Source: Candidatus Nanopelagicales bacterium
GTDB taxonomy: Bacteria > Actinomycetota > Actinomycetes > S36-B12 > UBA5976
Assembly (NCBI GenBank): GCA_023260395.1
Contig: JALQVI010000008.1
Location: 1 to 41,508, forward strand
Direction of reading: 5' to 3'
Length of the DNA: 41,508 bases
Positions 23,310-26,858 of this stretch are shown in pieces (position 1 is the stretch's first letter; every line of letters begins with the position of its first letter). The notes beneath the pieces are model-generated. The model did not search any database and had not been told where the DNA came from. It saw only the letters and a program-made list of their open reading frames with translations. The translations under genes and the position numbers were made by a program.

Positions 23310-24197
23310 CTACTTGACCAGTTCGTGCGAGCAAGCTTCGCTGCTGTAAGTAGCGGAGCAGTTATCGCACAGCAAAGTTAATTCGCGACATTGCAAGTTA
23401 GCGCAATTATGGAATTGGTTGGTAGGCGCCGAACATTTCTCGCATTCACCGATAACTTTTGTGTGATCTGAAAAATCGGTAACCATTCGGTCGTCAAAGA
23501 CATACAGCGAGCCATCCCACAGACCGTCGTCACCAAACTTTTCGCCATAGCGAACAATGCCACCTTGGATTTGGTAAACATCGTTAAAGCCACGATTCTT
23601 CATTAATACCGACAAGATTTCGCATCTAATTCCACCCGTGCAATACGAGATAATTTTCTTGTCTTTGATGTCGTCGTATTTGCCGCTTTCAAGTTCAGCT
23701 ATGAAGTCATGGGTAGTGCGCACGTCCGGAACGATAGCGTTTTTGAACTTGCCAATTTTTGCTTCAAAGGCATTGCGACCGTCAAAAAACACGACGTCAT
23801 CGCCATGAGCAGCAACGAGTTCATTCACTTGCTCAGGGGTAAGGTGTTCGCCACCACCAATGACTCCGTGACGATCAACCTTAATTTCTTCGGGAGCGCC
23901 GAACGAAACAATTTCGTCGCGTACTTTGACCTTTAGCCGTGGGAAATCGTTTCCAGTTCCATCGGACCATTTCCAGTCAATGCGTTTGAAACCCTGGTAT
24001 TCCTTGGTCGCACGGATGTAAGCCTTGAGGTCTTCCATGTCGCCGCCCAGAGTGCCATTGATGCCATGCTCAGAAATTAGAATGCGGCCTTTTAGATTCA
24101 GCTTCTCGCACAATGTACGTTGCCATAATCGAATTGCATGTGGGTCTTCGATGGGCGTAAATCCGTAATAAAGGATGATTTTGTTCAGCCGAGCCAT
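23310..24197 (-). CDS. trhO: tRNA uridine-34 hydroxylase TrhO (rhodanese-related)
   Basis: TrhO makes the 5-hydroxyuridine modification at the tRNA wobble position in an oxygen-dependent way. The 295-residue protein has the N-terminal UPF0176 acylphosphatase-like domain with [16 protein letters not shown], then a rhodanese domain with the catalytic cysteine in [10 protein letters not shown] (C186, C192), and a C-terminal Cys-rich tail (CEKC, C-x5-C and CDNC clusters) that looks zinc-binding. Length is normal for members with that tail. A GAGGTA sequence precedes the ATG, which also has a leaderless-type -10 nearby. Confidence 0.92.
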
Positions 24198-24349: not shown

Positions 24350-26731
24350 ATGCAAAGTTCAAATTTTCGCCGAATATTTCACGTCATTATGGTGGCGACA
24401 ACTTTAGTTCTGGGATCAACGGTGATGGCTTCGCCAAGCTATGCATATGGTGAATCTTGTCCCCTTCATTTTTCGGCAGCCACTGACTATTCAGGATGCG
24501 TTGGCTATAACACGGATCATCGTGGAGACTTTGCGCTGAGTTCGCAATTTGTTGGATCGTCGCTTTATTCTGCGAACTTCGAAAATGCACGCTTAGATGG
24601 AGCGAATTTCACCTCGGCGCGTGTATACGGAACGAATTTTTCAAATGCAAGTATGAGTTCTGCTAACTTTGGCTCAGCAGTTGCCTACCTTGCCAACTTT
24701 GCGAATGCCTATGCAATTCAAGCGAACTTTTCTAGCGCGATCGTTCAAGGCGCCAATTTCAATGGGGCTTATCTTATTCGTGCAAATTTTGGTGGCTCTG
24801 ATCTCTCGTATTCAAATATGACAAATGCCAATCTCTCAGATGTGAATCTTGCCGGAGCCGTGTTGCGCGGTGTTAGTAGCGGAGGTATTACTGGCGTCCC
24901 CACCGGCTTACCTAGTGGTTGGGCATTGACCGCTGGTTATTTAGTAGGACCTGAGGCGAATTTGTCAGGAATTGATTTTGGCTCGGCTGATTTCGGCGGA
25001 TTAAATCTTGCGGGCGCAAATATTGACAATGCGGATCTGTCAGACACTAATTTAATTGGTGTAAAGTCTGGCTCCATCTCAGGTACACCAGCATCGCTGC
25101 CAAGTGGGTGGCGTCTGGTTGGCGGATTTTTGCTCGGAAATGGAGCGAATTTAGCCGGGGCAGGCTTAGCAAACTCCAACCTCACCGATGTTAATCTGCA
25201 AAATTCCAATCTTGCTGGTGCCGATCTTTCGGGTACGACCTTAACCGGGGTGCGTTCTGGCGGCATCCGTGGAATTCCTTTGGCTCTACCTTCGGGCTGG
25301 TCGTTAGTTGATGGCTATTTAGTTGGTCCAGGCGCAAATTTGAGTTACGCAAACTTGTCGTTTAAAGACCTTCAAGGGCTGAATTTGTCGGGCGCAAATC
25401 TGAAATTTGCAAATGTAGCAGGAGCAAACCTGCATTCCGTCAACCTCACAGGTGCTGATTTCAACTTCGCCAATCTTGAAACAACGAACTTTTCTGCCGC
25501 AACATTGAGTGGGAGTTCAATGGGACATGCTTTAGTGACAGGCGCAAACTTCACGGACGCTGACCTCTCCAGTGTTACAGGGTCTTTCATTGATTGGAAA
25601 GATGCGATTTGTGCCGATGGAACAACTGGAATAAGCCACGCTTTGAATTCGTGCTTTGAACCTTTGCGATCTGAAATCGGTCCCGGGATTAATCTGGCAT
25701 CCGTTGATTTAGGAACCGCGACAATAGATGGAGTCAATCTTTCAGGAGCAAACTTAACTTCAGCAAATTTGAGCCATGTCACATTGCATAACGTTAAAGC
25801 AGTGTCGATTGTTGGCACCCCAGCTTCTCTTCCAAAAAATTGGAATCTTCGTCATGGCTATTTGATAGGTCCAAGCGCGGATTTGTCGAGTATTAATTTT
25901 GGTAATACGGATATCTCAAACACAAATTTGCAAGGGGCGAACATTGCCGGTTCAAGTTTCCTCAACGCGAATCTCACTGGCGTGAAATCGGGCGGTCTTC
26001 GTGGCGTCCCAAGTGCCTTGCCCGAAGGCTGGTCAGTGGTGGATGGATATCTAGTTGGACCAGGTGCAAATCTTGATCATGCTGATTTAGCTGGCTCAGA
26101 TTTATCCAGCGTCAATCTCACAGGAGCAAGCCTTCGTTATGCAAGCTTGCAGGCAACTGATCTCACTTCCGCAAACCTTACTAACGCGGTTTTGACGGCC
26201 GCAGATTTACAGGACGCAACGCTTTCACGTGCTAATCTCACTGGCACGAATCTTAGTCGCTCAAACATCGATACGGCCGATTTCTTATTTGCAACGTTGA
26301 ACAATGTGAGCGATCAAAATGTTGATTGGCACAATTCGCGATGTGCAGATGGCGGATTGGGTTCAACGCATTTGGCCAATACATGTCTTGGACCTGCACT
26401 TACGCAAGCAGTTGCCGTGGCCGCGCCGATTATTACTGGCGTGGCAAAGGTCAATGCCAAGAAAGTGAATTCGATTTCAACGACTGGGGGAGAGTGGTCT
26501 GGTATACCGCTTCCTACCAAGTCGTACCAATGGTATGTATGTAAGAACGAAGTGCCTGCAACTACGGCAATCATTCCGACACATTGCACAAAGATTGCAA
26601 AGGCGACAACTACTTCGCTCAAGGTACTTCCCACGTACAAAGGTAAGTTTCTGAGTGTTGCGGTCACAGGTCAGAGTACGGGCACGGCATCAAGTGTCGT
26701 TCTTGCGAAAAGTACGGCGAAAGTTGGTTAG
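24350..26731 (+). CDS. Secreted pentapeptide-repeat protein with internal duplication
   Basis: The 793-residue protein has a signal peptide (about 1-33), then a right-handed beta-helix of A(N/D)LxX pentapeptides from residue 70 to about 650. Five 32-residue inserts of the form G-V-x-S-G-x-I-x-G-x-P-x2-L-P-x-G-W-x-L-x2-G-Y-L-x-G-P start at 174, 237, 300, 481 and 544. Two Cys modules at 414-438 and 658-682 each hold W, CADG and a second Cys, probably a disulfide. Residues 199-438 align without gaps to 443-682, an offset of 244. The C terminus (about 691-790) resembles the Ig-like YQWYxC domain of actinobacterial surface proteins. No anchor or sortase motif is visible. GAGAAGG precedes the ATG by six bases. 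Function is unknown. Confidence 0.9.
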   Translation: MQSSNFRRIFHVIMVATTLVLGSTVMASPSYAYGESCPLHFSAATDYSGCVGYNTDHRGDFALSSQFVGSSLYSANFENARLDGANFTSARVYGTNFSNASMSSANFGSAVAYLANFANAYAIQANFSSAIVQGANFNGAYLIRANFGGSDLSYSNMTNANLSDVNLAGAVLRGVSSGGITGVPTGLPSGWALTAGYLVGPEANLSGIDFGSADFGGLNLAGANIDNADLSDTNLIGVKSGSISGTPASLPSGWRLVGGFLLGNGANLAGAGLANSNLTDVNLQNSNLAGADLSGTTLTGVRSGGIRGIPLALPSGWSLVDGYLVGPGANLSYANLSFKDLQGLNLSGANLKFANVAGANLHSVNLTGADFNFANLETTNFSAATLSGSSMGHALVTGANFTDADLSSVTGSFIDWKDAICADGTTGISHALNSCFEPLRSEIGPGINLASVDLGTATIDGVNLSGANLTSANLSHVTLHNVKAVSIVGTPASLPKNWNLRHGYLIGPSADLSSINFGNTDISNTNLQGANIAGSSFLNANLTGVKSGGLRGVPSALPEGWSVVDGYLVGPGANLDHADLAGSDLSSVNLTGASLRYASLQATDLTSANLTNAVLTAADLQDATLSRANLTGTNLSRSNIDTADFLFATLNNVSDQNVDWHNSRCADGGLGSTHLANTCLGPALTQAVAVAAPIITGVAKVNAKKVNSISTTGGEWSGIPLPTKSYQWYVCKNEVPATTAIIPTHCTKIAKATTTSLKVLPTYKGKFLSVAVTGQSTGTASSVVLAKSTAKVG
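24944..26395 (+). repeat. Tandem 732-bp internal duplication in pentapeptide gene
   Basis: The segment coding residues 199-438 (24944-25663) and that coding residues 443-682 (25676-26395) align in protein sequence with a constant offset of 244 residues. Anchors are the GP-ANL/GPGINL start, the two GTPASLP/GVPSALP inserts and the Cys module. The copies have diverged considerably, so the duplication is old. Confidence 0.75.
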
Positions 26732-26773: not shown

Positions 26774-26774
26774 G

Positions 26775-26858
26775 TGTCCGAGGGGGGACTTGAACCCCCA
26801 TCCCCGTGAGGGGACTAGCACCTCAAGCTAGCGCGTCTACCTATTCCGCCACCCGGAC
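26775..26858 (-). tRNA. tRNA-Leu (anticodon GAG)
   Basis: The minus strand folds as an 84-base class II tRNA. The acceptor arm is GTCCGGG paired with CTCGGAC including one G-U pair, with discriminator A at 26775. The anticodon stem CTAGC/GCTAG holds loop TTGAGGT, giving anticodon GAG at 26822-26824, which reads CUC and CUU. A long variable arm (TCCCCTC-ACGGGGA) and the T loop TTCAAGT are present. The 3' CCA is not encoded. A terminator follows directly. Confidence 0.95.

What the first reader, a model, noticed from the sequence alone, without database searches (positions are those of the whole stretch)
24944..26395. Exact 244-residue internal duplication in a secreted pentapeptide protein
Seen: residues 199-438 and 443-682 align at a constant offset of 244 with no gaps. 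Each copy runs: pentapeptides, insert module, pentapeptides, insert module, pentapeptides, Cys module. Inserts within a block are 63 residues apart (174, 237, 300 and 481, 544). Constant spacing despite strong divergence means length is under selection, as expected if helical register of the beta-solenoid matters. Known: pentapeptides form four-sided helices of 20 residues per turn.
Basis: partly seen in the sequence, partly recalled or inferred. Interest (0 to 1): 0.5.

Follow-up and report, generated by a model that had tools for sequence, protein, structure and literature searches.

The report
Secreted pentapeptide rod with hairpin modules
A freshwater-type actinobacterium secretes a long rod-shaped repeat protein built from reusable parts (five-residue repeats, a tryptophan hairpin, and cysteine end caps), and relatives show that only the five-residue rhythm between parts is fixed, not the exact lengths or the face on which the hairpins sit.

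Summary
The gapless 244-residue self-alignment is real but not exact: 108 of 240 residues (45%) match. The signal comes mainly from two portable modules; pentapeptide stretches match 49 of 139 at offset 244, no better than at other in-phase offsets. The five inserts are one undescribed ~33-residue module (GVxSGGIxGxPxxLPxGWxLxxGYLVGPGANL), predicted as solenoid sides plus a tight two-strand hairpin, not disordered. The Cys modules are end caps: outside the two orthologues, 25 of 27 pattern matches lie within 14 residues of a C-terminus. The first half of the hairpin module also ends 18 of 89 pentapeptide ORFs examined. Across 31 protein clusters, gaps between inserts run from 13 to 198 residues; 95 of 110 keep the pentapeptide phase and all four solenoid faces are used. 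The gene sits between trhO and tRNA-Leu(GAG), a slot lacking it in all 16 congeners where it could be checked; the one orthologue also adjoins trhO. It evolves fast (69% identity, against 94% for adjacent TrhO) under purifying selection. Probable role: extracellular spacer or binding rod. New variant of a known kind.

The parts
24350..26731 (+). whole ORF, 793 aa secreted pentapeptide-repeat protein
24350..24448 (+). signal-peptide-like N-terminus (residues 1-33; read by eye, cleavage after ...SYA not tested)
   Evidence: sequence; 52% identical to orthologue
24449..24517 (+). N-terminal cap with Cys37 and Cys50 (13 apart); both Cys kept in orthologue
24518..24847 (+). uninterrupted pentapeptide solenoid (residues 57-166), pLDDT about 80-95
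24848..24982 (+). hairpin module 1 (insert; V175, W191)
25037..25171 (+). hairpin module 2 (V238, W254)
25226..25360 (+). hairpin module 3 (V301, W317)
25568..25672 (+). Cys module 1 (DW...C421...C435), internal end cap followed by restart IGPGINL
   Evidence: low model confidence
25769..25903 (+). hairpin module 4 (V482, W498)
25958..26092 (+). hairpin module 5 (V545, W561)
26300..26404 (+). Cys module 2 (DW...C665...C679), end cap of second solenoid
26414..26728 (+). C-terminal ~105-aa domain, Cys731/Cys746, no Pfam match above cut-off; ends other secreted ORFs of the genus
23310..24197 (-). flank: TrhO/UPF0176 rhodanese, conserved on one side of the slot
26774..26858 (-). flank: tRNA-Leu(GAG); slot between it and trhO lacks this gene in relatives

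Best explanation
A secreted, modular pentapeptide beta-solenoid. Shown by sequence: a Cys-bearing N-cap; a long pentapeptide run carrying three hairpin modules; a Cys end cap; a second pentapeptide run with two hairpin modules and its own Cys end cap; and a C-terminal domain shared with other secreted proteins of the genus. Predicted: each 'insert' is not a break but three in-phase solenoid sides (V..., I..., ..LP), then a tight beta-hairpin (W-x-L / G-Y-L), then a restart at GANL. The same module without its restart ends shorter relatives, so it works both as a terminator (hairpin at the last coil) and, with a restart appended, as an internal protruding hairpin. Whole pentapeptides can be gained or lost between modules, because each adds one side of the square helix without breaking the phase; off-phase changes are mostly removed. 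The equal 63-residue units and the two like blocks therefore reflect descent by module or block duplication plus selection for phase, not selection for one face. Inferred function: a disulfide-capped extracellular rod that holds hairpins away from the cell wall as a spacer or binding surface. The gene entered (or survived only in) the trhO/tRNA-Leu slot in one lineage of the genus and evolves fast there.
For: Pentapeptide membership. Module profile and conserved W, LP and GYL. Five of five inserts show EEE--EEE with E every 5 residues before and after, pLDDT about 75-90. Half-module at the C-terminus modelled at mean pLDDT 95.1, pTM 0.89, with the hairpin starting exactly 5 residues after the last side. 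18 of 89 pentapeptide ORFs of the fetched loci carry the half-module in their last 45 residues. Cys module within 14 residues of the C-terminus in 25 of 31 matches, 4 of the other 6 being this protein and its orthologue. Gap phase 3 mod 5 in 111 of 131 pairs, and 95 of 110 after clustering. Inserts more conserved than pentapeptides between orthologues (77% against 66%) and dN/dS 0.12, with dS near saturation. Slot without the gene in 16 of 16 congeners with both flanks on one contig, with tRNA-Leu present in 9 of 9 fetched. Best structural neighbours are pentapeptide solenoids and their synthetic loop variants.
Against: The model rests on two sequences; pTM is 0.47, and Cys module 1 and everything after about model residue 600 are low confidence. 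No coordinates or PAE were available, so hairpin directions are counted, not measured. Function is untested and no operon partner hints at it. Face use is not uniform (37/26/14/13), so some preference for orientation may exist. Lateral gain and multiple loss cannot be told apart. The signal peptide was read by eye.
Confidence: 0.62

Rival explanations
1. One reading: a block duplication whose exact length is held by selection so that inserts and Cys modules stack on one face of the solenoid.
For: No indel within blocks against the orthologue; three of three in-block gaps equal 33 residues here, while 33 occurs in only 6 of 123 gaps outside the two orthologues; insert 3 and insert 5 group together with support 89.
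Against: Gaps range 13-198 across the family, in steps of 5; all four faces used; 63 residues is 2.5 or 2.75 turns by strand counting; offset 245 in the orthologue.
Confidence: 0.12
3. The modules are not protrusions but breaks: end cap plus restart, making a string of separate short solenoids joined by flexible hinges.
For: Half-module and Cys module both end whole proteins; restart motif GPGxNL follows both the inserts and Cys module 1; confidence drops at Cys module 1.
Against: For the hairpin modules confidence does not drop and strands stay in phase, and a regular synthetic solenoid (4ycq, Z 24.4, rmsd 2.2, 168 aligned) was aligned from model residue 9 to 204, across module 1. It may hold for Cys module 1 only.
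Confidence: 0.2
4. A Qnr/MfpA-like DNA mimic acting on gyrase, with the hairpins as the gyrase-contacting loops.
For: Same fold class; Qnr has two protruding loops that matter for activity (passages of PMC8145042).
Against: Signal-type N-terminus and paired cysteines; all Qnr/MfpA models far below their cut-offs (for example MfpA 73 of 360, Qnr 71 of 240).
Confidence: 0.03

Closest known systems
Pentapeptide repeat proteins (PF00805; HetL 3du1, NP275/276 2j8k)
   Same: A(D/N)LXX repeats, right-handed square solenoid; HetL also has loop insertions and a two-stranded antiparallel sheet on its C-terminal end (passage of PMC8145042; fold match)
Synthetic Rfr solenoids beta1 and loop variants (4ycq, 5dqa, 5dns, 5dra)
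   Same: top structural neighbours of both models; [quoted passage not shown] its title seen in a reference list)
   Different: those are designed; here a natural, conserved hairpin module
QnrB1 / AhQnr / AlbG loops
   Same: solenoid with protruding loops of 8-13 residues
   Different: not secreted, unrelated loop sequence, one or two loops only
YjbI-type secreted pentapeptide protein of Caulobacter (PMC12864828)
   Same: secreted pentapeptide solenoid with cysteines (start of abstract and passages)
   Different: 183 residues, outer-membrane/LPS setting; no such module was mentioned in the passages seen
Disulfide-capped fungal ice-nucleation solenoids (PMC13288671)
   Same: covalent Cys caps stabilising solenoid ends (abstract)
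   Different: different repeat and function

Membership tests
Pentapeptide repeat protein (PF00805) | profile score above the curated cut-off; at least 8 contiguous repeats | tested here: met
   252 bits against 20.2, 12 stretches
Pentapeptide repeat protein (PF00805) | square right-handed solenoid, 4 repeats per turn | tested here: met
   predicted strand every 5 residues, Z 24 to 2j8k/4ycq; prediction, not experiment
Qnr / MfpA gyrase-protecting proteins | NCBIfam equivalog/exception cut-offs | tested here: not met
   MfpA 73.4 of 360, Qnr 71.4 of 240 bits
HetL | NF047416 cut-off 260 | tested here: not met
   171 bits
Alr5209 family (NF052603) | cut-off 125 bits over a 113-position single-domain protein | tested here: inconclusive
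   159.9 bits summed over 10 stretches, so the cut-off is passed, but the best stretch covers 73 of 113 positions; probably a summed repeat score
YjbI-type secreted PRP | function in envelope homeostasis | not testable with these tools
Insert module in any Pfam family | Pfam-A hit to the insert itself | tested here: not met
   51-aa insert: only Galanin E 0.07 and Pentapeptide E 0.08, both under cut-off
Insert module in PDB sequences | profile hit to a solved chain | tested here: inconclusive
   best is galanin E 0.074, a 15-residue match taken as coincidence

The most novel reading that the evidence does not exclude
Nature runs a small construction grammar for open-ended solenoids: initiator (GPGANL), any number of five-residue sides, and two interchangeable terminators (W-hairpin or Cys cap). 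Fusing a terminator to an initiator gives an internal projecting hairpin, so actinobacterial surface rods are lengthened and decorated side by side with only the five-residue phase to obey.
Probability: 0.45. Interest if true: 0.5.

Novelty: new variant of a known kind. Interest (0 to 1): 0.36.

Why it matters
It gives a simple, testable rule for how a natural repeat rod tolerates length change (whole sides yes, partial sides rarely) and a natural counterpart of a designed hairpin on the same scaffold, useful to people who design solenoids or study cell surfaces of small actinobacteria.

Tried and rejected
Exact duplication: rejected (45% identity). A gyrase-mimic role: rejected on cut-offs and secretion signal. 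Mobile or plasmid/phage origin of the module: tblastn of residues 167-367 finds only matches under 60% identity in 29 plasmid and 5 phage records, annotated as plain pentapeptide proteins in the rows listed except one hypothetical protein (I infer from the hit lengths that the inserts are mostly skipped). One viral contig (L070) carries one module, and an exact DNA pattern for the GYLVGPGANL part finds none in viral contigs. Presence in another phylum: 0 of 349 genomes of the phylum of G920 (the genome of L023, whose record title says Pseudomonadota); that call had no positive in its own set, but the same profile matches 10 of 396 Actinomycetota-side genomes of the window's phylum. VIA-align lists were filled by pentapeptide proteins; SV2 luminal domains at Z 9-13 are taken as the shared repeat fold only. 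Intrinsic terminator and promoter scans gave nothing above chance. Literature searches with 'pentapeptide repeat' plus freshwater, actinobacteria, hairpin, cap, loop, insertion or metagenome terms showed no paper on this module in their listings. Papers: PMC13123833 and PMC13288671 abstracts (the first also passages); PMC8145042, PMC12864828 and PMC12775518 passages only.

Limits on the counts: the profile searches of whole genomes scored only part of the candidates in many genomes (at most 18, at most 43), so module counts are lower bounds. Of the 22 order genomes with a match I took regions from 16 and left out six with single weak matches (G798, G812, G843, G897, G899, G034); regions were taken from all 21 of the class search and all 10 of the phylum search, but not for every listed match. 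ORFs were kept only with at least 5 A-x-L-like triplets (89 ORFs). The face counts use only in-phase gaps up to 130 residues (90 of 100). One search compared a wrong ORF for the orthologue blocks; redone. Positions printed for L001 are 4 higher than protein numbering.

Full report
What is there. The ORF 24350-26731 (+) encodes 793 residues with a signal-like N-terminus and an overwhelming pentapeptide match. The word 'exact' is not: 108 of 240 aligned residues are identical.

Is the 244 offset a duplication? It is the best ungapped self-offset, yet the identity sits in the modules: 59 of 101 in inserts and Cys modules, 49 of 139 in pentapeptides. Other in-phase offsets reach 33% (264), 29% (239) and 29% (234) in the pentapeptides. 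The stretch between inserts 4 and 5 is closer to that between inserts 1 and 2 (12/29) than to its partner at 244 (7/29); in the orthologue the two are 10/29 and 11/29. A block duplication is likely but old and not proven. Each insert's nearest relative is its positional counterpart in the orthologue, so any duplication predates the two species.

The orthologue. One other genome of the genus (G022; the same protein as in L021, record title 'Actinobacteria bacterium isolate Jr-14may18-260') has the same architecture at 69% identity, cut by the contig end. Only two internal one-residue indels separate them, one near residue 42 and one at the block junction, so its block offset is 245. All seven cysteines that can be compared are conserved. 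dN is 0.215 against 0.042 for the adjacent trhO; synonymous sites are near saturation in the gene and saturated in trhO; dN/dS is about 0.12 in the gene; inserts are 77% and pentapeptides 66% identical.

The insert module. Sixteen copies from five proteins give the consensus LxGATLxGVxSGGIxGxPxxLPxGWxLxxGYLVGPGANL with invariant V, G, LP, W, L, G, L. Pfam and PDB sequences do not know it. It occurs in 10 of 396 genomes sampled from the window's phylum, 21 of 395 of the class of G397, and 22 of 166 of the window's own order, in 0 of 349 genomes of the phylum of G920, and once in a viral contig. In the window's genus it is in 2 of 23 genomes.

Predicted shape. In the AlphaFold model of the mature chain (two sequences; mean pLDDT 72.8, pTM 0.47) the solenoid and all five inserts have pLDDT of about 75-95. 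Strand marks fall every five residues up to V+1, V+6 and V+11 in 4 of 5 inserts (V+1, V+6, V+10 in the first), then a three-plus-three hairpin, then the next side 29 residues after V. A relative ending in the half-module is modelled at pLDDT 95.1 and pTM 0.89, its hairpin starting five residues after the last side. A regular synthetic solenoid (4ycq) aligns over model residues 9-204 to chain residues 52-233, 196 against 182 positions, which fits about 13 extra residues per insert (end points only). Counting sides this way, one 63-residue unit is 10 sides (2.5 turns); counting the first hairpin strand as a side gives 11 (2.75). Neither is a whole number of turns.

Spacing across the family. In 89 pentapeptide ORFs of the fetched loci there are 131 consecutive module pairs; 111 have gaps of 3 modulo 5. 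After grouping 35 proteins into 31 clusters, 95 of 110 do, and of the 90 in-phase gaps up to 130 residues the four classes modulo a turn hold 37, 26, 14 and 13 (uneven, but the gaps are not fully independent). Several off-phase gaps run through visibly irregular repeats. So phase is kept, face is not fixed. The window's own class is one of the two rarer ones.

Cys modules and ends. A pattern search in the same ORFs finds 31 Cys modules: 25 within 14 residues of the C-terminus, 4 in this protein and its orthologue, 2 elsewhere in L147. The half-module ends 18 of 89 ORFs, among them a set of short N-anchored proteins in one genome, G130. Both modules are thus terminators; in the window protein they are followed by a GPGxNL-type restart, apart from Cys module 2, which leads into the C-terminal domain.

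Neighbourhood. Flanks are TrhO (UPF0176 rhodanese), MarC, tRNA-Leu(GAG) and an M20 peptidase. In 16 of 16 congeners with TrhO and M20 matches on one contig the two lie 187-317 bases apart, or 792 in G020, against 2786 here. The nine sites I fetched of these 16 all hold the tRNA-Leu; those aligned show the empty slot, and G020 has another small ORF there, acetyltransferase-like by eye. The orthologue in G022 also adjoins trhO. Gain in one lineage is the simplest account; repeated loss is possible.

Function. No experiment speaks to it. A secreted, Cys-capped rigid rod with projecting hairpins and a C-terminal domain common to other secreted-type proteins of the genus best fits a surface spacer or binding scaffold.

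Noticed in passing
window 26414-26728; L005-L009, L017, L034: The last ~105 residues form a domain without Pfam match above cut-off that sits at the extreme C-terminus of six other ORFs (L005, L006, L007, L008, L009, L017) and near the end of one in L034, but internally in L019 and L020; it may be a sorting or wall-binding domain of this genus.
   Followed up: partly
L034 +7949 (own genome, contig C11): A 1177-residue ORF has two short pentapeptide blocks, each opening with a Cys-bearing stretch and closing with a half-module (PAGWAVVNG) before Fn3-like sequence (the Fn3 label is by eye).
   Followed up: partly
L149 and L151: Very long relatives of 2582 and 2180 residues carry 16 and 14 hairpin modules.
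   Followed up: no
L079 and L080 (genome G130): A cluster of short paralogous pentapeptide proteins, with an N-terminal membrane-anchor-like segment (by eye), ending in the half-module; looks like a locally duplicated family.
   Followed up: partly
window 24917-24958 (residues 190-203): The insert core GWALTAGYLVGPEA resembles the start of the animal peptide galanin (E 0.07); taken as coincidence.
   Followed up: partly
L176 1020-1487: In G020 the same trhO/tRNA-Leu slot holds a different small ORF, suggesting a site prone to gene turnover.
   Followed up: partly
L036 +1269: Near-identical tandem copies of the module with 52-residue spacing in G025, apparently a recent expansion.
   Followed up: no
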